This document shows, piece by piece, positions 8,294-29,334 of a stretch of DNA of 35,957 nt. Made by a program: the position numbers and the translations under genes. Numbering within the stretch: position 1 is the first letter of the stretch; every line of letters starts with the position of its first letter. The notes under the pieces were generated by a model. It was not told where the DNA came from. It saw nothing but the letters and a program-made list of their open reading frames with translations, and did not search any database. The stretch comes from Chloroflexota bacterium (GTDB taxonomy: Bacteria; Chloroflexota; UBA11872): positions 1 through 35,957 of the forward strand of contig JAPPLN010000047.1 in assembly GCA_028874175.1 (NCBI GenBank), written 5' to 3'.

Positions 8294-8377
8294 CAATGGG
8301 ACCTCGTGGAGTCGGGTGGAGAGCAATGTCTGAGTATAGTAGATTGACACTTCGCCTTGAGTTGGGACAGATTCTTG

Positions 8378-9865
8378 ATGATTAGCCACAAGTGGCAGCC
8401 AATTGCGCCGCTTTCTGAGATTGATGACCACAGCCGACTTGCACTGACTCGCCTAGAGAATACAGCCAGAGTTTGGAACTATTCCAAACTTGAGCTGTCA
8501 GGCAGTGAGGCGTTTGATGGTTTCTTGGGTAAACTACATCGTTCAATAGCCATAGAAACTGGAATCATCGAGGGGTTATATGAAATAGATCGTGGACTTA
8601 CTGAGACTCTCGTTGTTCAGGGGTTTTCGAAGGACGCTGTTGAACGTTCAGGAGAATCAGTCCCCGAGAACACACTTCGAATGCTTAGTGATCAACTGGA
8701 TAGCCTCTCTTCGATCATGGACTTTATTGGTGGAACCAGGGAATTGAGTCCAGCATATATAAAGGAGCTCCATCACCTAATTACGAGATCACAGTCCCAC
8801 TATACAGCATACAATTTATTCGGTCAGGAAGAAGAGCGGCCACTGATGCATGGACTATATAAAACAATGCCGAACAATCCGACTCGCCAGAATGGGTCAG
8901 TTCATGAATACGCGCCCGTCGAACAGGTTGCCGTGGAGATGGATAACTTAGTTGAGATGTTCAATCAGAGCGTTTCTGACGAAGCTGCGGTAGTTGGTGC
9001 GGCTTGGCTACACCATCGATTCGTGCAGATTCACCCCTTTCAAGATGGCAACGGCAGGGTTGCGCGGGCTCTCGCGTCGATAGTCCTGCTTCGAGCCGAG
9101 CTATTTCCGCTGCATATTCGTCGAGAGGATCGTGATGTCTATATTGACGCTCTTGAGGAAGCCGACCGCGGATCCCTCGATGCGCTTGTTCAGCTTTTTG
9201 CTGCCCGAGAGCGAGATGACATGCTCTGGGCGGTCTCAGAGTTGGCTCGAGAGGCGGTTGCGCCGATTCAAGGCGGCCGTACTGCAGATGTCGCCGCAGC
9301 GGTTGCAGGTGAATATGCGCGTAAGCGACGAGACGTGCTTGATCAGCGTCGGCAGGTCAATTTCGTCGCTGAAGCCCTCGTCGAATATGGGGCGAAAATC
9401 CTCGATAGTAACCTGGAACAGGCAAGGGTTGCTTTTTCTGCCCAGGGTATTCAATTCTCTTCATACGTTGACTGCGGAGGCTCCAACGACGAACGCGGTC
9501 ACTGGTGGGGATATCAGATAGTCGAAGCTGCCAAGCGCCTGAAACACTGGGCGAATATTCCAGAAAACAAGTATTGGATTCGCTCGTTCATAATGCTCGC
9601 AGACGTTCGGATGCGATTTGTCGTATCTTTGCACCACGTTGGCTCTCCCGTGTCCGGCTTTATGGCGGCTGTAGCCTTTGCTGAGATTCAATATCCTGAA
9701 GCAGATCCAGATGACACACAAGAGAAGGAGCTTGTTCACTGCTCTCATCATGCATTCACTTTCACCGAACACGATGCTGGTGAAGAACTAAACTGCAGTT
9801 TCGAGAATTGGCTGGACGAGGCTCAGGCTGTAGCTCTGCGAATCTTGGGAACTGCCGCCATCTAA
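8378..9865 (+). CDS. Fic domain protein with N-terminal self-inhibitory motif
   Basis: A protein of about 495 aa. HPFQDGNGRVAR (residues 219-230 from this start) is a full Fic active-site motif with catalytic His, the Mg2+-binding acidic residue and the anion-binding GNGR. Fic enzymes usually transfer AMP from ATP to target proteins. Upstream, TGIIEG (61-66) fits the [S/T]xxxE[G/N] inhibitory helix, so this is a class II Fic protein that should regulate itself. Roughly 230 residues after the Fic core form a domain I do not recognise. A TTG at 8357 is also in frame, but the ATG at 8378 has GGGACAG 7 nt upstream. The gene faces against its neighbours and its G+C and codon use are clearly lower, suggesting acquisition by transfer. 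Confidence 0.9.
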   Translation: MISHKWQPIAPLSEIDDHSRLALTRLENTARVWNYSKLELSGSEAFDGFLGKLHRSIAIETGIIEGLYEIDRGLTETLVVQGFSKDAVERSGESVPENTLRMLSDQLDSLSSIMDFIGGTRELSPAYIKELHHLITRSQSHYTAYNLFGQEEERPLMHGLYKTMPNNPTRQNGSVHEYAPVEQVAVEMDNLVEMFNQSVSDEAAVVGAAWLHHRFVQIHPFQDGNGRVARALASIVLLRAELFPLHIRREDRDVYIDALEEADRGSLDALVQLFAARERDDMLWAVSELAREAVAPIQGGRTADVAAAVAGEYARKRRDVLDQRRQVNFVAEALVEYGAKILDSNLEQARVAFSAQGIQFSSYVDCGGSNDERGHWWGYQIVEAAKRLKHWANIPENKYWIRSFIMLADVRMRFVVSLHHVGSPVSGFMAAVAFAEIQYPEADPDDTQEKELVHCSHHAFTFTEHDAGEELNCSFENWLDEAQAVALRILGTAAI

Positions 9866-16284: not shown

Positions 16285-17781
16285 CTAACCGTCCAGGTAC
16301 CTCTCCACCGCCCCCGCAAACTCCATTGCTTCGTCGTCATACGTCTCAAACGGATCCGGCATCTCGAAGATCCGCCCCCGCACCCCAATCCCGTCCCAGT
16401 CCACCAGGTACGGCACGAATGACCAGCCCCCAAACTCGTCCAGTTCCCGCCAGTGCTCGATGTACTGGTACACCAGGTACAGCTGGTTCTCCCAGCTCGC
16501 CAGGGCGCCCAGGTTGTGCTGGATGTCCTTCCAGTCGATGTGCGAGTCCGCGCGCGCCTCCGAAAGCGCCCGCACGATTCGCCCCCGTGCCCCGGCCCGA
16601 GTCCCCTCCGGAATGGCTAGCGGATTCACCGGCCCCGAAACCAGCCGGTTCATCAGCCCGCGCCGCTGCAACTCGCTGAATAGGCTAACTGTGGGATCAA
16701 CGTGGTGGTACGCCAGGTCCAGCTTCACCAGGTCCGGGTCCGCCCAGCCTTCCGGCGAATCGTCCGCGTAGTCCCGCAATTCCGACAGCTTCGTCACCCA
16801 GTCCACCCTGCCAATCAGGCATTCCGGGTCCGTCGCCAGCCCGTCCAGGCACTCATTCCACGCCGCCAGCGTCCAGTCGGTGTCCGCGTCGCGACCACCA
16901 AAGGCCGAAGCTGCGGCCTCCAGGTAAGTCCGCTGCACGTCGATCGCCGATATCGTCCGCCCGTCCACCAACTCCACCGGCCACGGCCCGCCCGGATTAC
17001 GCGATATCGACTTGATCGACCGCACCGCCTCGTCCAGGTACAGCTCCGGATTCCAGCCTGCCGCCAGCAACTGCGCCACCAGCGCCGTGCTCCCCACCTT
17101 CAGCGCCGTCGCGTACTGCGACTGGTTCGCGTCCCCCACCACCACGTGCAGCCGCCGCAGGCCGGTCCGTTCGCTCAGCGGTTCATCCCGCAGGTTGATG
17201 ATCGGCCGCCCCCCAAACCGCACCCGGTGGCTCACGTCCACCGACACGAACGCCGCCCGCTGCGACATGTGAAACGGCAGCCGCCCGCCCGCTTCCTCTG
17301 GATTCAGCGTCATGCCCGCCCCGGCGTATAGCTGCCGCGTCGTCAGAAAGGGCAACAAGCCCAGCACCAGCTCGCGACTCCGCGGACTCGTCACGATCGA
17401 GTAGTTCTCGTGATACCCGAACGTGTTGCCCAGGTGGTCCGTGTTGTTCTTGATGAAGAACAGCTTTCGGTTCATCTCCTGCCGTTCCACCGTGTCCAGC
17501 AGCACCGCCGAAGCCGCGTTTTCCTGCTCCACGATGTCTCGTAGCGTCCGGCACTCCGCGGAGGCGTACTCGATGTGCCCCGAATCCAGGTACAGCCGTG
17601 CCCCGTTGAACAGGTGCCCGCCGTTCCCCGGCTCCTCGTCCCACTCCCGCGGCGCCGGATCGATCAGCCCGAATCGGCGGTCCTGGAACAGGATCGACTT
17701 CACCAGCCGCGCCGCCTGCCCCGGCGGCAATGCCCCGGCCGAGGCGAACTCGATCTCCGTCCCAAAGACGATGTCGTCCAT
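16285..17781 (-). CDS. pafA: Pup ligase PafA (divergent)
   Basis: A 498-aa protein of the Dop/PafA family, which shares the glutamine synthetase fold. FGTEIEF (6-12) matches the N-terminal GxExEF motif whose glutamates bind Mg-ATP. NGARLYLD (59-66) ends in D66, the conserved catalytic Asp. KNNTD (111-115), GYHENY, INLRDEP and RLHVVVGDANQS are further family blocks. PafA phosphorylates the C-terminal Glu of Pup and ligates it to substrate lysines. It lacks the Dop-specific loop found in the neighbour, so ligase is the better call. It is longer than the roughly 450-aa mycobacterial protein, with an extended C-terminus, and has HIEY where HPEY is usual. It starts 9 nt after the pup stop. Confidence 0.85.
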   Translation of the reverse strand: MDDIVFGTEIEFASAGALPPGQAARLVKSILFQDRRFGLIDPAPREWDEEPGNGGHLFNGARLYLDSGHIEYASAECRTLRDIVEQENAASAVLLDTVERQEMNRKLFFIKNNTDHLGNTFGYHENYSIVTSPRSRELVLGLLPFLTTRQLYAGAGMTLNPEEAGGRLPFHMSQRAAFVSVDVSHRVRFGGRPIINLRDEPLSERTGLRRLHVVVGDANQSQYATALKVGSTALVAQLLAAGWNPELYLDEAVRSIKSISRNPGGPWPVELVDGRTISAIDVQRTYLEAAASAFGGRDADTDWTLAAWNECLDGLATDPECLIGRVDWVTKLSELRDYADDSPEGWADPDLVKLDLAYHHVDPTVSLFSELQRRGLMNRLVSGPVNPLAIPEGTRAGARGRIVRALSEARADSHIDWKDIQHNLGALASWENQLYLVYQYIEHWRELDEFGGWSFVPYLVDWDGIGVRGRIFEMPDPFETYDDEAMEFAGAVERYLDG

Positions 17782-17790
17782 GCGTTGCCG

Positions 17791-17967
17791 CTATTGGCCG
17801 CCCGGTTGCGGTGTCGGGTCTGGAATCTCCCGGATGATCCGCCGCCTGCGCTCCCGCAGGTCTTCTTCTTTCTCCGGCGCCGCCGGCTCCGTCGGCGCTT
17901 CCGCCGGTTTGGTCGGCGCCTCGGTCTCGCCTCGCCACGCCGGACCCATCTGAATCAACTGCCTCAT
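17791..17967 (-). CDS. pup: Prokaryotic ubiquitin-like modifier Pup (UBact-like), ends in GGQ
   Basis: A 58-aa protein from the ATG at 17967. It has no hydrophobic core. The middle is rich in Pro, Glu, Ala and Lys, followed by one charged helix (EEDLRERRRRIIREI) and a proline-rich tail ending PQPGGQ. The C-terminal Gly-Gly-Gln is the Pup signature: Dop deamidates Gln to Glu and PafA then joins that Glu to lysines. It lies exactly between dop and pafA, which settles its role better than similarity could. Compared with mycobacterial Pup it is shorter and has Pro in place of the usual helix running up to the GG. A GTG at 17976 is also in frame but lies inside the Shine-Dalgarno. Confidence 0.85.
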   Translation of the reverse strand: MRQLIQMGPAWRGETEAPTKPAEAPTEPAAPEKEEDLRERRRRIIREIPDPTPQPGGQ

Positions 17968-17972
17968 GTCAA

Positions 17973-17981
17973 TCACCTCCC
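17973..17981 (-). promoter_or_regulatory. Ribosome binding site of pup, overlapping the dop stop codon
   Basis: GGGAGGTGA, an almost full match to the anti-Shine-Dalgarno complement, ends 5 nt before the ATG at 17967. Its last three bases are the TGA stop of dop. Ribosomes finishing dop would therefore stop on the pup initiation site. This also argues against the GTG at 17976 as the pup start, because that codon is inside this site. Confidence 0.8.
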
Positions 17982-19475
17982 GTCCGCGTCCAGCGCGGTC
18001 AGCAATTCCTCCAGCGTCTTCGCTTCCGAAACCAGCCGCCCCAGCCGATCGACTTCTGGTCCTACGACGTCATCAAATCGCAGCGTCACGTCATATCCGT
18101 TTCGACGAAACACCACCCGGTCCCACTCCACCGCGCTGATGTCCTCGCCAAACCTGCGCAGCACGTCCCCGCGAACCGCCGCCCGCGTACCCGTCGGCGG
18201 CTCCGTCAGCGCCCGCTCGATGTCAGCATCGCCCACGATCCGCCGCATTCGCCCTTCCTCCACCAGCATGTCGTACACGCACCAGTCGGGATCCAATACG
18301 TGGTACCCCAGGTCGACCCGCCGCGCATCCTCGTCCTTCCACTCCGGCCCAAAGTCCTCGCGCATCTCCGCGATCAGGCACTCCTTTGCCACCCAATCCA
18401 CCCGATCCCCCGCCCGCGACCGGTCCTGCCGCAGGTCCTCCAGCACCGCCGCCCACTCATCCAGCACCCACGTCGTCTCCGCGTCCCGGCCGTGGTACCG
18501 CTGGGCCGCATCGCAATACCAGCGCTGCACGTCCAGCCCCGAAACCGCCGGCCCTCGCTCCAGGTCCACGACCCCGCCGAAATCCAGGTCGTGCGACACC
18601 TGCCGTACCGCCCGCACCGGATCCGTCAGCCGCTCCGAAGGGCGCCACCCCTCCATCGCCAGGTCCAGCGTCAGGGCCATGGTGCCCACCTTCATCGCCG
18701 TCGCCCATTCGCTTCGGTTCGCGTCCCCCGCGATCACGTGCAGCCGCCGGTACTTCCCGGCGTCCGCGTGCGGCTCGTCCCGCGTGTTGAAGATCGGGCG
18801 CCGCGCCGTCGTATTGATTCCCGTCACTTCCTCGAAGAAATCCGCCCGCTGCGACATCTGCAGTTGCAGCGCGTCACCTCCCTCGATTCCAACCCGCCCC
18901 GCCCCCGCAAACACCTGCCGTGTCGCCAGGAACGGCACCGTCACCCGGATCAGGTCGTCCGTCGGAATCCTCCGAGACGTCAGGTAATTCTCGTGGCATC
19001 CATAGCTGCGTCCGTGGTAATCCGTGTTGTTCTTCAACAGTCGAATCTGCCCGTAACCCAGCCTCGCGTTCCGCGCCGTCTCCGCCGCGAACATCACCCG
19101 CTCGCCCGCCTTGTCCTGCGCCACCAGGTCCTTCAGCGTCAGGCAGACATCCGTGCAGTACTCCGGGTGATTGTGGTCGTTGTACAGCCGCGCCCCGTTC
19201 TGCAGCACCGTGTTCGACAACAACTCGTCGCGTGACATCCGGCTGCTGCGGTCCGTCGAACCCGTCAGATCGCGCGGGTCCCGTTCCAGCCGGTCCGCCC
19301 GTCCGCCCCGCAAGTCGCGGTACGGGTCCTCGCCCACGTAATCCCAGCCGCGAAACGCGCCCTCAACCGGCGCCGCCTGGATCAGTCGGGCAGCTTCGTA
19401 GGCAAAGTCAGGTTCGCCCGCAAAGCCCTCGCAGTTGAGCCCGTATTCGGTCTCGATGCCTGCGGGACGGTTCAT
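17973..19475 (-). CDS. dop: Pup deamidase/depupylase Dop
   Basis: A 500-aa member of the Dop/PafA family. GIETEYG (6-12) supplies Mg-ATP-binding glutamates. NGARLYNDHNHPEY (93-106) contains D100, equivalent to the catalytic Asp of Dop. WDYVGEDPYRDLRG (44-57), followed by an inserted stretch to about residue 90, corresponds to the Dop-specific loop region (WDY-x-ExPxRDxRG in mycobacterial Dop). KNNTD, GCHENYL, NTRDEPHADA and RLHVIAGDANRSE are the other family blocks. Dop converts the C-terminal Gln of Pup to Glu and can also strip Pup from substrates. Its stop lies inside the pup ribosome binding site. The gene starts 46 bp after the ornithine cyclodeaminase-like gene. Confidence 0.92.
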   Translation of the reverse strand: MNRPAGIETEYGLNCEGFAGEPDFAYEAARLIQAAPVEGAFRGWDYVGEDPYRDLRGGRADRLERDPRDLTGSTDRSSRMSRDELLSNTVLQNGARLYNDHNHPEYCTDVCLTLKDLVAQDKAGERVMFAAETARNARLGYGQIRLLKNNTDYHGRSYGCHENYLTSRRIPTDDLIRVTVPFLATRQVFAGAGRVGIEGGDALQLQMSQRADFFEEVTGINTTARRPIFNTRDEPHADAGKYRRLHVIAGDANRSEWATAMKVGTMALTLDLAMEGWRPSERLTDPVRAVRQVSHDLDFGGVVDLERGPAVSGLDVQRWYCDAAQRYHGRDAETTWVLDEWAAVLEDLRQDRSRAGDRVDWVAKECLIAEMREDFGPEWKDEDARRVDLGYHVLDPDWCVYDMLVEEGRMRRIVGDADIERALTEPPTGTRAAVRGDVLRRFGEDISAVEWDRVVFRRNGYDVTLRFDDVVGPEVDRLGRLVSEAKTLEELLTALDADGR

Positions 19476-22870: not shown

Positions 22871-23019
22871 ACATCATTCGTTCCGCGGCGTGCGCTGCTT
22901 GGGTGAACCTAGCACGGGCCACGTCGAGATTCGGCTCCGGGAACGTCGGACCCGACGCCGGCAAGCCCCGCTCTCGCATGCGAAGATCGTCAGCGAACCA
23001 GCGCCCGGACGAATTCCCA

Positions 23020-25281
23020 ATGGCCCTTACAGCACCTGAGCTCAACGTCGTTGGAACCAGCCCCATCCGCCACGACGGCGTCGATAAGGTCACCGGGCAC
23101 GCGGTCTTCGGCGTGGACGTCAGCATCCCCGGCATGCTCCATGCCCAGGTGCTCCGCAGCCCCCACGCCCACGCCCGCATCGCCCGCATCGACACCTCGC
23201 GGGCCGAGGCCCTCCCCGGCGTCCTGGCCACCATGACGTCGGCCGACATTCCATTGCCGCCGCTGGACGGCCCGCAGGCCTTCGGCAACGCCATCCACCT
23301 CAAGGCCATGAATGCCATGGCGCGCGACAAGGCCCTCTACCACGGCCACGCCGTGGCCGCCGTGGCCGCCACCTCGCCCCATATCGCCTCCGAGGCCCTC
23401 CGCCTGATCGACGTCGAATACGAGGTACTCGACCCCGTCCTCGACGCTAAATCCGCCAGTGCCCCCGGCGCGCCAATCCTGCACCCCCACCTGCGCATGG
23501 AAACCGCCGGCGCGTTCGCCGACGTCCCGGGGAACATCGCCAAGCACATCGTCCTCGAAGAGGGTGACATCCAGGCCGGCTTCGCCGCCGCCGACCTGGT
23601 CCTGGAACGCGACTTCAGCACCTCCACCATCCACCAGGGCTACATCGAGCCCCACAACGCCACCGCCTTCTGGCGTGCCGACGGCACCCTCGAAGTCCAC
23701 TGCAGCACCCAGGGCCACTTCGGCGTCCGCAACGAGATCAGCCAGATGCTCGGTATCCCGATCTCGAACATCCGCGTCGTCCCCGCCGAAATCGGCGGCG
23801 GCTTCGGCGGCAAGCTCACCAACTACGTCGCCCCGATCGCGGTAGTCCTCGCCCGCAAGTCCGGTCGACCGGTCAAGATCACGATGGACCGCACCGAGAC
23901 CCTCCTCGGCACCGGCCCCGCCCCCGCTGCCTTCATCCGCTGCAAGCTCGGCGCCACGTCGGAAGGCGACCTCACCGCCGCCCGGCTCACGATGTACTTC
24001 GAGGCCGGCGCCTTTCCCGGCTCCTCCGTCGGCGGCGCCGCCAACTGCGGCTTTGCCCCCTACCGGCTCGAGAATTTCCGCGTCGACGGCTACGACGTCG
24101 TCGTCAACAAGCCCAAGTCCCAGGCCTTCCGCGCTCCCGGCGCCCCCCAGGCGGCCTTCGCCGTCGAGGGCGTCATCGACGAATTGGCCGAGACCCTGGG
24201 CATGGATCCCCTCGAGTTCCGTCTCCGCAACGCTTCCGGCGAAGGCGACCTGCGCCCCAATGGCACCCGCTTCAACGACATCGGCAACAGCGAGCAACTC
24301 CGCGTCGCCCGGGAAACCGATCACTGGCAATCCCCGGTCGCGCAGCAGAACGGCCGCCTCTGCGGACGCGGCGTCGCCTCCGGCTTCTGGGGCAACGGCG
24401 GCGGAACCTCATCCGCCACCGCCCGCCTCAACGGCGACGGCTCCGTCACCCTCCTGGAGTCCTCTCCCGACATCGGCGGCACCCGCACGTCCATCGCCAT
24501 GCAACTGGCCGAGACCCTGGGCATCGGTTCGGACCGCGTCCATCCCCGCATCCCCGACACCGACGCCATCGCCGAAGGCGGCAACGCCGCCGGCAGCCGC
24601 ACCACCTTCGCCACCGGCTGGGCCGCCATCGAGGCTGCCCGCGATCTGCAGAGCAAGATGCGCGACGCCCTGGCCGACATCTGGGATGTGGCCGAGTCGT
24701 CGATCGACGTTTCGCTGAACGGCTTCGCCGCCAACGGCTACTCAGTCGACTTCGCCGAGGCCGCCCGCCTGATCGTCGGCGAAGGCGAGGCTCCCGTCGG
24801 CGTCGCCACCACCACGCCAACCCTCCCCGGCCCCTCCTTTGCCACCCACATCGTCGACGTCGCCGTCGATCCTGAAACCGGCAAGGTCGACGTCCTGCGC
24901 TACACCGCCATCCAGGACGTGGGCAAGGCCGTCTATCCGCCCTACGCCAGCGGCCAGATCGAGGGCGGCATCGCCCAGGGCATCGGCTGGGCCATCACCG
25001 AGGGCTACACCTACGACGACGCCGGCCGCATGACCAACACCTCGTTCCTCGACTACCGCATGCCCACCGCGTTGGACGTCCCGAACCTGGAAATCGTCAT
25101 GGTCGAGTACCCCAACCCCGGCCACCCTTACGGCGTGCGCGGCGTCGGCGAACTGCCGATCGTCCCGCCCCTGGCCGCCCTCGCCAACGCTATCCATGAC
25201 GCCACCCGCGGCCGCATCCGCCACCTCCCCGCCTCGCCGGTTCGGGTGCTGGAGGCCGTCAACGGATCCGAGAACGCCTAG
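23020..25281 (+). CDS. Xanthine dehydrogenase family, molybdopterin-binding large subunit
   Basis: A 753-aa protein of the Mo-hydroxylase large subunit family (XdhA/CoxL/aldehyde oxidoreductase type). GGGFGGK (259-265) is a molybdopterin-binding loop, AFRAPGAPQA (369-378) is the conserved segment near the Mo site, and GVGELP contains E711, the active-site base. CoxL CO dehydrogenases have an AYRCSFR loop instead, so this is not a CO dehydrogenase. The substrate may be an aldehyde, a purine or another heterocycle. The frame is open back to a GTG at 22903, but the family N-terminus fits the ATG at 23020. The partner [2Fe-2S] and FAD subunits are absent nearby, which is unusual. The aldo/keto reductase gene follows after 38 bp and is probably co-transcribed. 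Confidence 0.92.
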   Translation: MALTAPELNVVGTSPIRHDGVDKVTGHAVFGVDVSIPGMLHAQVLRSPHAHARIARIDTSRAEALPGVLATMTSADIPLPPLDGPQAFGNAIHLKAMNAMARDKALYHGHAVAAVAATSPHIASEALRLIDVEYEVLDPVLDAKSASAPGAPILHPHLRMETAGAFADVPGNIAKHIVLEEGDIQAGFAAADLVLERDFSTSTIHQGYIEPHNATAFWRADGTLEVHCSTQGHFGVRNEISQMLGIPISNIRVVPAEIGGGFGGKLTNYVAPIAVVLARKSGRPVKITMDRTETLLGTGPAPAAFIRCKLGATSEGDLTAARLTMYFEAGAFPGSSVGGAANCGFAPYRLENFRVDGYDVVVNKPKSQAFRAPGAPQAAFAVEGVIDELAETLGMDPLEFRLRNASGEGDLRPNGTRFNDIGNSEQLRVARETDHWQSPVAQQNGRLCGRGVASGFWGNGGGTSSATARLNGDGSVTLLESSPDIGGTRTSIAMQLAETLGIGSDRVHPRIPDTDAIAEGGNAAGSRTTFATGWAAIEAARDLQSKMRDALADIWDVAESSIDVSLNGFAANGYSVDFAEAARLIVGEGEAPVGVATTTPTLPGPSFATHIVDVAVDPETGKVDVLRYTAIQDVGKAVYPPYASGQIEGGIAQGIGWAITEGYTYDDAGRMTNTSFLDYRMPTALDVPNLEIVMVEYPNPGHPYGVRGVGELPIVPPLAALANAIHDATRGRIRHLPASPVRVLEAVNGSENA

Positions 25282-26624: not shown

Positions 26625-27374
26625 ATGCGCTTCGGCGACCTCACCTACCTCGAAATCCGCCAGCAGGCAAAGACCGGCTGCCTGGCGATCCTTCCCACCG
26701 GCTGCACCGAGCAACAGGGTCCGCACCTCCCCGTCGACTTCGACACCTGGTTCGCCGAGCGCCTCTGCCTGGCGGCGTCCCGACGGGCTGCGGGCAAGTA
26801 CCGCGTTCAATCGCTCGTGCTGCCCGCCATCCCCTACGGTCCAACGCCGGAGCATCGGAACTACGGGGCGGGCTACGTCGATATCCCTGGTGAGCTCCAC
26901 AGCGATCTGGTCTCCGCAACCTTGCTTTCCCTCGCCGAGCAGGGCTTCGAGCGCATCGTCGTCTGGCGCGGCTGCGGAGGCCATGACTTGCGTGGCACCG
27001 TTCGGCAGTTCAACCAGGTAAGCCCACTCAAAGCCCAGGCTTTTCTGCCTGAGCACCCCTTCCACGAAATCTGGTGCCGTCTCGGCGACCCGGATGTGCC
27101 AGGCGGCCACGCCGACAGCTTCTCAACCTCGATATCGCTCCATCTGCGCCCCGCAACCGTCCGGGTGAACGAGATCAGGGATCCCGCTCATCGACCCGTT
27201 GACTGGCAGGATCCGAATCTGGACTTCGCGCGCTACTCGTCCACCGGGGTCATTGGCAACCCCACCCACGTCAGCGCCCAGCTTGGCGCCAAACTCTGGG
27301 AGGCCTCCGTGGCGAGCGTCGCGAAGACCTTGCGCGCAATATCGCTGACCTCCGCATCTACCGACGGTCCCTAG
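26625..27374 (+). CDS. Creatininase family protein with altered metal site
   Basis: A 249-aa protein of the creatininase / mycofactocin MftE-like amidohydrolase family. PTGCTEQQGPHLPVDFD (24-40) corresponds to the hallmark PxGSxEQHGPHLPxxTD. E29 and D40 are kept, but the metal-binding His is Gln (Q31). GCGGHD (116-121) replaces the usual NGHGGN, so Cys117 stands where a ligand His is expected and His120 is three residues on. GHADSFSTS (161-169) replaces GHAGExETS. The family hydrolyses cyclic amides with two metal ions. These changes suggest a coherent subfamily with another metal arrangement or no catalysis. It starts 165 bp from the divergent membrane protein and converges on the selenoprotein gene. 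Confidence 0.82.
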   Translation: MRFGDLTYLEIRQQAKTGCLAILPTGCTEQQGPHLPVDFDTWFAERLCLAASRRAAGKYRVQSLVLPAIPYGPTPEHRNYGAGYVDIPGELHSDLVSATLLSLAEQGFERIVVWRGCGGHDLRGTVRQFNQVSPLKAQAFLPEHPFHEIWCRLGDPDVPGGHADSFSTSISLHLRPATVRVNEIRDPAHRPVDWQDPNLDFARYSSTGVIGNPTHVSAQLGAKLWEASVASVAKTLRAISLTSASTDGP

Positions 27375-27400
27375 CGGTGCGTCGATTGCCGCGCCGTCGA

Positions 27401-27438
27401 GATTCGGCGACAGCCTGAATCAGGCTCCCAGCCGAATC
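27401..27438. terminator. Two-level hairpin between convergent genes
   Basis: The outer arms GATTCGGC and GCCGAATC (8 bp) enclose an inner perfect palindrome, AGCCTGA-A-TCAGGCT. The element lies between the stops of the creatininase gene (27374) and the selenoprotein gene (27466), where a bidirectional terminator would be expected. No T-run follows on either side. Confidence 0.55.
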
Positions 27439-27465
27439 CGACTCTATTCGCGAGGCCCGCTCCGC

Positions 27466-27714
27466 TTACGCCAGTGCCGCGCTCACCAGCGGCAGCACCT
27501 CGCCGTCCTCCGCGTGACGCCCCAGCGCCTTCTTCGAGAACACCAGGTCGCCGTCGACGACCACCTCGAACACGCCCCCGCCCGACGGCATCAGCGTCAT
27601 TTCGCCCACGTCGGTGCCATGCTCTCCCAGGATCTCTTCCGTCGCACGGACGGCTTTAGGGAGATAGTTTCATTGGCTGCAGTATTCAATCGAGACTCGG
27701 GCGCCGCGTCCCAT
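27466..27714 (-). CDS. SelW-like (Rdx family) selenoprotein, UGA read as selenocysteine
   Basis: Reading through one in-frame TGA (27670-27672) gives an 82-aa protein that matches the Rdx (SelW/SelT/SelH) thioredoxin-like family from end to end. It has VSIEYC(12)SQ-U(15)-NYLPKA, then GGGVFEVVVDGDLVFSKK (45-62) and GRHAEDGEV. The TGA falls exactly at the second redox position of CxxC/CxxU, the place where SelW carries selenocysteine. Downstream coding is intact to a TAA. GAGGGAG lies 6 nt before the ATG at 27714. Such proteins are small thiol oxidoreductases. A nonsense mutation or sequencing error is the alternative, but the position and the following hairpin favour Sec. No sel genes are in the window. 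Standard ORF calling splits and misses this gene. Confidence 0.85.
27623..27664 (-). promoter_or_regulatory. Candidate bacterial SECIS hairpin downstream of the in-frame UGA
   Basis: Starting 6 nt after the UGA, the RNA can form a lower stem UCUCCC/GGGAGA (27659-27664 with 27623-27628). An internal loop follows, then an upper stem CCGUC/GACGG (27649-27653 with 27639-27643) capped by the 5-nt loop CGUGC. The loop begins 22 nt after the UGA and has G at its second position. Both agree with the bacterial SECIS consensus as I know it (a short loop at 16-37 nt with G in its first two bases). Confidence 0.65.
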
Positions 27715-27897
27715 GGTGCGCTCCCTCGTGCGGGTGGTGCATTAGGCGTACGCTGCAATTGTCGCATGCGCGCTGCCTCGGCTCACCTTTGCTAGGAGCA
27801 AGGCGCGTTAGATTTCCGGAAACTGAGTGCCAACTCGTGCCAGGGCAGCGTCGGGATTACAGGGCCGCACTGTCCGCACTCGACTGGAGGTGGCCAA

Positions 27898-29334
27898 ATG
27901 AAGACTGATGTAACTGACCTCGGCTCAAGCAAGCACCTCTTCATCGACCTCTCCCTGGCCGACCACACGTCCAACGTGGCATTGGGCGTCAATCCCCCGC
28001 GCCTGGGCGGCATCGCAATCGGACGCGACCGCGCCTGGGAGCACCACATCCACTTCCAGAACACGGTCCTCGACGACAACGGCCTGGGCCGCTGCTGGTA
28101 CCTCGCGTCGATCATCCGCGGAGGACTGGAATCCGCTCGGTTTGGCTACGCCGAGTCCGAGGACGGTCGTCATTGGCGCAAGCCCAACCTCGGCCTGCTC
28201 GAACTCAACGGCCGGCGCGACATGAACCTCATCCCGCCCAAGCCCAAGCGCTCCAACGTCTTTATCGACCCGACCGCCCCCCCTGCGGAGCGCTACAAGA
28301 CCTTCGGCCTCAGCCTCGAAGGCGATCCCGGAGGCGACGGCTACGGCGTCTTCGCTTCCCCCGACGGCTACGTCTTTCGCGAGCTTGGCTGCAACGGCCT
28401 CCGGCTTGCCGGCGATACCCAGAACATGGCCTTCTGGGACGACCGCATCGGACGCTACGTCGCCTACCTCCGGGGCTTCTCCCACCATCCCGACGGCCGC
28501 CGCCGGCGCGCGGTCGCGCGCTGGGAAACCGACGACCTCACCAGCCGCGACGGCTGGGACCTGTCGAACGAGGAAAGCGACCGTCACGTCATCAACCAGT
28601 TGCCCATCGTCATCGCCTGCGACGACGACGATCCCCCCGACATGGACATCTACACCCCATCCGTCGTCAAATACCCGGGGGCTGACGACGTCTACTTCGC
28701 CACCATGTCCATGTACCACCACTTCACCCCCGACGAGATGGACGACACAGACCCGCCCCGCAACGACGGCCTTATGGACATCCAGCTCGCCGTCAGCCGT
28801 GACGGCATCTCCTGGGACCGCCCCGACCGCCGCCCCTACGTCGGCATCGACGCCGAAGGCCCCGGCCAGCGCATGTGCTACGCCGTCCAGGGCATTCTGG
28901 TTCGCGGCGACACCGTCCTCCAGTACCACACCGCCTACGACCAGTCCCACGGCCACAAGCGCCAGAACAACCCCGGCGGCGTCATCCGCTGGACCGAGCA
29001 GCGCTTGGATGGCTTCGTCAGCGCCAACTTCGCCTACACCGGCGGCGAACTCGTCACCCGGCCAATCACCTTCGACGGGTCCAAACTGATCCTCAACGTC
29101 GACGCCTCAGCCTCCGGCGAAGGCCGGGTCGAAATCCAGGACGCCCACGGCCGCCCAATCCAGGGCCGCACCCTCGCCGACTGCGACCGCATCCTCGGCA
29201 ACTACCTCCGCCACCCCGTCACCTGGGGTGGCGATTCAAACCTCGGCGTACCCCCCAACACCCCAATCCGCCTCCGCTTCGCCCTCCGCAGCGCCCGCCT
29301 CTTCGCCCTGCAATTCACCGAAGCGAGCGTCTAG
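27898..29334 (+). CDS. Beta-propeller glycosidase-like protein (divergent paralog)
   Basis: A 478-aa protein with the same architecture as the propeller proteins at 21197 and 34379 but more diverged. KHLFIDLSLADHTSNV (12-27) aligns with their N-termini. GRCWYLAS and FGYAESEDGRHWRKPNLGL match the strand and DG.HW repeats. AVSRDGISWDRP is a later repeat. The C-terminus reads IRLRFALRSARLFALQF, matching the shared RLR...ARL pattern. It lacks the HP.NPVLP.G segment of the other two. No signal peptide is visible. The fold suggests glycosides as ligands; the function is unproven. The ATG at 27898 has GGAGGT 6 nt upstream. It is divergent from the selenoprotein gene across 183 bp. Confidence 0.75.
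   Translation: MKTDVTDLGSSKHLFIDLSLADHTSNVALGVNPPRLGGIAIGRDRAWEHHIHFQNTVLDDNGLGRCWYLASIIRGGLESARFGYAESEDGRHWRKPNLGLLELNGRRDMNLIPPKPKRSNVFIDPTAPPAERYKTFGLSLEGDPGGDGYGVFASPDGYVFRELGCNGLRLAGDTQNMAFWDDRIGRYVAYLRGFSHHPDGRRRRAVARWETDDLTSRDGWDLSNEESDRHVINQLPIVIACDDDDPPDMDIYTPSVVKYPGADDVYFATMSMYHHFTPDEMDDTDPPRNDGLMDIQLAVSRDGISWDRPDRRPYVGIDAEGPGQRMCYAVQGILVRGDTVLQYHTAYDQSHGHKRQNNPGGVIRWTEQRLDGFVSANFAYTGGELVTRPITFDGSKLILNVDASASGEGRVEIQDAHGRPIQGRTLADCDRILGNYLRHPVTWGGDSNLGVPPNTPIRLRFALRSARLFALQFTEASV

What the first reader, a model, noticed from the sequence alone, without database searches (positions are those of the whole stretch)
27466..27714. Hidden selenoprotein: SelW-like CxxU protein interrupted by in-frame UGA
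On the minus strand an ATG with a good Shine-Dalgarno opens a frame with one TGA at codon 15 and then continues intact to a TAA at codon 83. The readthrough product matches the Rdx family over its whole length: EYC-SQ-U-NYLPKA, GGVFEVVVDGDLVFSKK and GRHAEDGEV. The TGA stands exactly where Rdx proteins carry the second redox Cys or Sec. Conventional gene callers would miss it or report a fragment. It implies that the host decodes UGA as selenocysteine.
Basis: partly seen in the sequence, partly recalled or inferred. Interest (0 to 1): 0.9.

Follow-up and report, generated by a model that had tools for sequence, protein, structure and literature searches.

The report
SelW-like selenoprotein in a Chloroflexota
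A small redox protein gene in an uncultured Chloroflexota bacterium is very probably read through a stop-like UGA codon to insert selenium-containing selenocysteine; the reading is well supported, but the protein belongs to a well-known marine selenoprotein family.

Summary
The finding holds. On the minus strand at 27714-27466 an ATG frame preceded by GAGGGAG has TGA at codon 15 and TAA at codon 83. The read-through product matches Rdx (PF10262) over its length and models as a SelW-like fold. The same genome, inferred to be a Chloroflexota MAG, holds selA, selB, selD and a tRNA-Sec with anticodon TCA; its selD also carries an in-frame TGA. In the host's class 38 of 41 genomes have the gene; all 39 copies carry exactly one in-frame TGA, and at the 36 copies read it stands at the Sec position. 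The part after the UGA is under purifying selection. A hairpin 21 nt after the UGA keeps its pairing, has suppressed synonymous change and fits the published bacterial SECIS model, except that alone it is slightly weaker than the energy limit. SelW-like CxxU proteins are an established bacterial selenoprotein family, with SelD the most widespread in marine samples (PMC2398784, passages). So: a real selenoprotein gene, a new member of a known kind. Substrate and reductant remain unknown.

The parts
27466..27714 (-). SelW-like selenoprotein gene, 82 residues with Sec at residue 15 (CxxU motif: Cys12-Ser-Gln-Sec15), stop TAA
   Evidence: Pfam Rdx 70.6 bits; NCBIfam NF041051 90.9 bits
27670..27672 (-). 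in-frame TGA codon read as selenocysteine (inferred)
   Evidence: exactly one in-frame TGA in 39 of 39 Rdx matches in the class, at this position in the 36 read
27639..27653 (-). candidate bacterial SECIS hairpin: CCGUC-CGUGC-GACGG, 5 bp, loop 21 nt after the UGA, G-U at loop positions 2-3; exact register not settled
   Evidence: another register in the 56-nt fold; model constraints from PMC13188914
27721..27727 (-). GAGGGAG, Shine-Dalgarno-like, 6 nt before the ATG
   Evidence: GGAG shortly before the start in 9 of the 10 loci printed, this one included

Best explanation
The gene encodes a SelW-like (Rdx family) thioredoxin-fold selenoprotein. Ribosomes start at the ATG, reach UGA at codon 15, and SelB bound to a small hairpin just downstream delivers Sec-tRNA-Sec, so that translation goes on to the TAA. 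The product has a Cys12-x-x-Sec15 redox motif between the first strand (5-12) and the first helix (18-32) of the model. It most likely works as a selenol/thiol oxidoreductase that forms and resolves an intramolecular selenenylsulfide, using cellular thiols or thioredoxin as reductant. Shown by sequence: gene, machinery, conservation, hairpin. Inferred: actual Sec insertion and the chemistry. Unknown: substrate and partner.
For: Rdx match across the TGA. Model with mean pLDDT 90.4, Cys in place of Sec; best Foldseek hit 2fa8, a SelW-related protein, E 8.3e-10, TM 0.87. selB 343 bits with SelB winged-helix and beta-barrel domains; tRNA-Sec 71.2 bits, anticodon tca; selA 514 bits; selD 376 bits with its own in-frame TGA. 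Class survey: 39 matches in 38 of 41 genomes, each with exactly one TGA; SelA over its cut-off in 39 of 41, SelD in 38 of 41. Genome G023 (96% complete) has none over cut-off of Rdx, SelA, SelD or tRNA-Sec. dN/dS 0.277 after the UGA over 20 distinct genes of the host's family. Hairpin: 92.2% of cells paired, 0 of 500 shuffles as high; synonymous divergence 0.156 in codons 16-26 against 0.409 in codons 27-80. TGA is also an ordinary stop here: 2 of 4 Pfam-supported window genes checked end in TGA.
Against: No protein or selenium data. The isolated hairpin folds at -7.0 kcal/mol, just short of the -7.5 limit of the published model, and the 56-nt fold prefers another register (5' arm shifted by 3 nt, 3' arm by 1) and is no more stable than shuffles (z -1.01, 35 of 200 as good). 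8 of 26 distinct sequences do not beat their synonymous-codon null at 0.05. The main both-sided change (U-A to C-G, 7 of 23 rows) also changes two amino acids, so protein-level coupling is possible; two of the five measures do not exceed the shuffles (80 and 461 of 500). G029 has the TGA gene but no SelA over cut-off (77% complete); G021 and G032 have it without SelD over cut-off (84% and 81%).
Confidence: 0.96

Rival explanations
1. Pseudogene: a Cys-type Rdx gene inactivated by a nonsense mutation.
For: A stop-like codon interrupts the frame.
Against: All 39 class matches, in five families, carry exactly one in-frame TGA and no other stop inside the match; dN/dS 0.277 downstream of it; Sec machinery present.
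Confidence: 0.01
2. Sequencing or assembly error at the TGA.
For: The window is one of 121 contigs of a draft genome.
Against: 61 of 62 homologous loci read show TGA; they come from many assemblies, one of them a single-contig genome (G018), though many loci are duplicates between collections.
Confidence: 0.005
3. UGA is read as an ordinary amino acid (a variant genetic code such as Trp or Gly) or by stop-codon suppression, not as Sec.
For: A frame open across TGA alone does not tell which residue goes in.
Against: TGA ends 2 of 4 Pfam-supported window genes checked and all four use TGG; selA, selB, selD and tRNA-Sec present; the TGA sits on a redox Cys position; hairpin with SECIS features.
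Confidence: 0.02

Closest known systems
Bacterial SelW-like (SELENOW-like) selenoproteins, CxxU, PF10262 (PMC1794560, PMC2398784, PMC9312934; passages read)
   Same: Same Pfam family, same CxxU motif with Sec in second position, in-frame UGA, bacterial-type SECIS candidate just downstream, Sec machinery in host.
   Different: No difference of kind found. The host is an uncultured Chloroflexota lineage; the passages read do not name it for SelW-like, and the listings showed no paper on it (most listed papers were not opened).
Cys-type Rdx proteins with solved structures (2fa8, 3dex, 2ojl, 2obk, 2oka, 2p0g)
   Same: Sequence match and fold; CxxC in the same place in the two alignments printed, 2fa8 and 3dex.
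   Different: The query has Sec where 2fa8 and 3dex have the second Cys; the other four were not compared at that residue.
Selenoprotein W of mouse (2npb)
   Same: Rdx fold: weak sequence match E 0.0064, structural match E 1.9e-4.
   Different: Distant; eukaryotic SECIS elements lie in the 3' UTR and are of another type (PMC1088965, passages).

Membership tests
SelW-like selenoprotein (Rdx, PF10262) | Sequence match to the Rdx family over the whole domain | tested here: met
   70.6 bits against cut-off 22.6, profile 1-72 of 74
SelW-like selenoprotein (Rdx, PF10262) | CxxU motif at the redox site | tested here: met
   Cys12-Ser-Gln-TGA15, aligned with CxxC of 2fa8 and 3dex
SelW-like selenoprotein (Rdx, PF10262) | Thioredoxin-like SelW fold | tested here: met
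   predicted model pLDDT 90.4; 2fa8 TM 0.87; model computed with Cys for Sec
SelW-like selenoprotein (Rdx, PF10262) | Host decodes Sec (selA, selB, selC, selD) | tested here: met
Bacterial SECIS (model as stated in PMC13188914) | Apical loop 3-9 nt with G in first two positions, stem 4-16 bp, loop 16-37 nt after UGA | tested here: met
   5 bp, loop CGUGC, 21 nt
Bacterial SECIS (model as stated in PMC13188914) | Minimum free energy of -7.5 kcal/mol or lower | tested here: inconclusive
   isolated hairpin -7.0; 56-nt stretch -15.4 but in another register
SelW-like selenoprotein (Rdx, PF10262) | Selenium actually present in the protein | not testable with these tools
   needs 75Se labelling or mass spectrometry

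The most novel reading that the evidence does not exclude
Within this Chloroflexota class SelW is fixed as a selenoprotein: no Cys version was found, and where the gene is missing it seems lost rather than converted, so that the enzyme may depend strictly on selenium; the SECIS hairpin shifts by two to four bases in some lineages while keeping a G-U loop.
Probability: 0.5. Interest if true: 0.35.

Novelty: new member of a known kind. Interest (0 to 1): 0.25.

Why it matters
It indicates that an uncultured Chloroflexota lineage makes selenoproteins, at least SelW-like and SelD, and that a reading under the ordinary code breaks this gene in two (one search does not list it). [quoted passage not shown] It does not open a new mechanism.

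Tried and rejected
Rejected: pseudogene, assembly error and variant genetic code (see rivals). An Rfam scan of 27400-27900 gave one match far below its gathering score, judged chance. No match in plasmids (E limit 1e-5) or phages (E limit 1e-3). No sigma-70-like promoter or terminator-like site in 27370-27960. The family PF02627 (AhpD-like), which holds known selenoproteins (recalled), had no match in the genome; other selenoprotein families were not sought. The gene shows no operon: its neighbours are a creatininase-like gene facing it (26625-27374 +) and a divergent gene without a Pfam or NCBIfam match (27898-29334 +). In 48 relatives' loci, whose flanks are at most 3 kb, these were found in 8 and 17 loci, those close to the window's genus. 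A first motif scan missed two loci (L067, L068); they were read directly and with a wider motif.

Full report
Observation. GAGGGAG ends 6 nt before the ATG. With TGA read as Sec the 82-residue product matches Pfam Rdx at 70.6 bits (cut-off 22.6) over residues 6-77, NCBIfam NF041051 at 90.9 bits (cut-off 88) and TIGR02174 at 51.6 (34.2). Eight distinct PDB sequences match it at E up to 0.1, six of them bacterial Rdx proteins, 2fa8 first at E 2.2e-14; the two alignments printed put the TGA on the second Cys of their CxxC. A model from a 6-row alignment, Cys in place of Sec, has mean pLDDT 90.4. Foldseek's first 21 PDB rows are chains of these same six proteins (2fa8, 2obk, 2oka, 2p0g, 2ojl, 3dex), followed by MIEN1, mouse SelW and thioredoxins.

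Host. That it is a Chloroflexota is inferred: of 26 named loci with a related gene, 22 are titled Chloroflexi or Chloroflexota and one Ardenticatenaceae, up to 99% identical in this protein, and L053, titled uncultured Chloroflexota, matches the single-contig genome G018 of the host's genus in protein and position. The other three titles are Rhodothermales, Gammaproteobacteria and Acidimicrobiia. The window's genome has selB (343 bits, cut-off 242) with GTPase, SelB beta-barrel and SelB winged-helix domains, selA (514 bits, cut-off 268), selD (376 bits, cut-off 125) and one tRNA-Sec with anticodon tca (71.2 bits). A second tRNA-Sec hit over the cut-off (50 bits) is a tRNA-Ser. The selD gene has one in-frame TGA, in the stretch GAGUACK. 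TGA is also a normal stop: of four window genes with Pfam support that I checked, two end in TGA and two in TAG, and all use TGG. SelB was searched in the own genome only.

Distribution. In the host's order 22 of 24 genomes have an Rdx match, 23 places, all with one TGA. In the class 38 of 41 genomes have one, 39 places, each with exactly one TGA inside. I read the codon itself at 36 of these 39 places (loci L001, L021-L042, L070-L082); all 36 are TGA in the CxxU position; those of G031, G032 and G033 were not read. Of the 26 named loci 25 read TGA and one, from a gammaproteobacterium (L067), reads TGC; many of these are the same genomes as the unnamed ones. The patterns of that scan came from this subfamily, so 25 of 26 says nothing about Rdx at large. 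SelA passes its cut-off in 39 of 41 class genomes and SelD in 38 of 41. Of the 39 SelD places over the cut-off, 38 hold one TGA (its position was read in the own genome only) and one, a partial match from model position 54, holds none. tRNA-Sec was sought in eight other genomes and passes the cut-off in six; the best hit in each of those six is called tRNA-Sec with anticodon tca. Three genomes lack Rdx: G023 (96% complete) also lacks SelA, SelD and tRNA-Sec over cut-off; G019 (93%) keeps all three; G035 (69%) keeps SelA and SelD but has no tRNA-Sec over cut-off. Against a perfect pattern, G029 (77% complete) has the TGA gene, SelD and tRNA-Sec but no SelA over cut-off, and G021 and G032 (84% and 81%) have no SelD over cut-off; these may be gaps in the assemblies.

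Selection and hairpin. Over 20 distinct genes of the host's family (Nei-Gojobori type counts) dN/dS is 0.117 before the UGA and 0.277 after it: the part after the UGA is a maintained protein. Synonymous divergence is 0.156 in codons 16-26, against 0.375 before the UGA and 0.409 in codons 27-80, as expected of an RNA element there. In 23 of the 26 distinct 48-nt stretches, the pairing CCGUC/GACGG holds in 92.2% of cells, with changes on both sides in 8 cells at two of the five pairs; 0 of 500 shuffles reach the cell percentage, the both-sided cells or the covariation score, and the slid versions are lower on these three. The other two measures are unremarkable (80 and 461 of 500 shuffles). The commonest paired change, U-A to C-G (7 rows), also changes Val22 and Thr25 to Ala, so protein-level coupling is possible. 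The rows that break at least one pair (L024, L029, L068, L070) form another hairpin two to four bases nearer the UGA whose loop again holds G-U. A hairpin at least as good arose in under 5% of synonymous recodings in 18 of 26 sequences (3% for the window's) and in 6-35% in the other 8. [quoted passage not shown] The window's hairpin has a 5-nt loop CGUGC, 5 bp and 21 nt; its own energy is -7.0, and a fold of 56 nt prefers another register and does not stand out from shuffles, so the exact pairing is not settled.

Mechanism. Inferred from the above and from the established bacterial pathway (details recalled; outlined in passages of PMC1088965): SelA and SelD serve to make Sec-tRNA-Sec, SelB binds the hairpin and delivers it at UGA15. 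The product would be a CxxU selenol/thiol oxidoreductase. Its reductant and substrate cannot be told from the sequence, and the gene stands alone, between a creatininase-like gene and a gene without a Pfam match, so the neighbourhood gives no hint.

Known or new. SelW-like proteins are listed as a bacterial selenoprotein family, with very few or no Cys homologs in Sec-decoding organisms and Sec suggested as the original form; the same paper counts three selenoproteins in Chloroflexi (PMC1794560, passages). [quoted passage not shown] PF10262 with CxxU is in current tables (PMC9312934; PMC13188914; passages). The listings of four literature searches showed no paper on SelW-like selenoproteins in this lineage; of the papers listed I opened only those named here, by passages. 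The result is a new member of a known kind.

Noticed in passing
L018:1441-2445 (own genome, contig C13): SelD is itself a likely selenoprotein: one in-frame TGA in GAGUACK; 38 of 39 class SelD places over cut-off carry one TGA.
   Followed up: partly
genome G023: A 96% complete order relative has no Rdx, SelA, SelD or tRNA-Sec over cut-off: a likely complete loss of Sec decoding; its selB was not searched.
   Followed up: partly
window 16285-19475: Two adjacent Pup-ligase family genes (342 and 482 bits), which suggests a pupylation/proteasome system in this genome.
   Followed up: no
window 22903-25281: Molybdenum hydroxylase large subunit (xanthine dehydrogenase / 4-hydroxybenzoyl-CoA reductase type), below the curated cut-off of all 13 NCBIfam models listed, the selenium-dependent one included.
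   Followed up: no
window 8357-9865: Fic/DOC family gene.
   Followed up: no
L065: A short contig labelled Rhodothermales carries a gene almost identical to the copy in L022 from the host's order; probably a binning error, possibly transfer.
   Followed up: no
genome G016 (L034, L042): Two copies of the SelW-like gene on different contigs; recent duplication or two strains in one bin.
   Followed up: no
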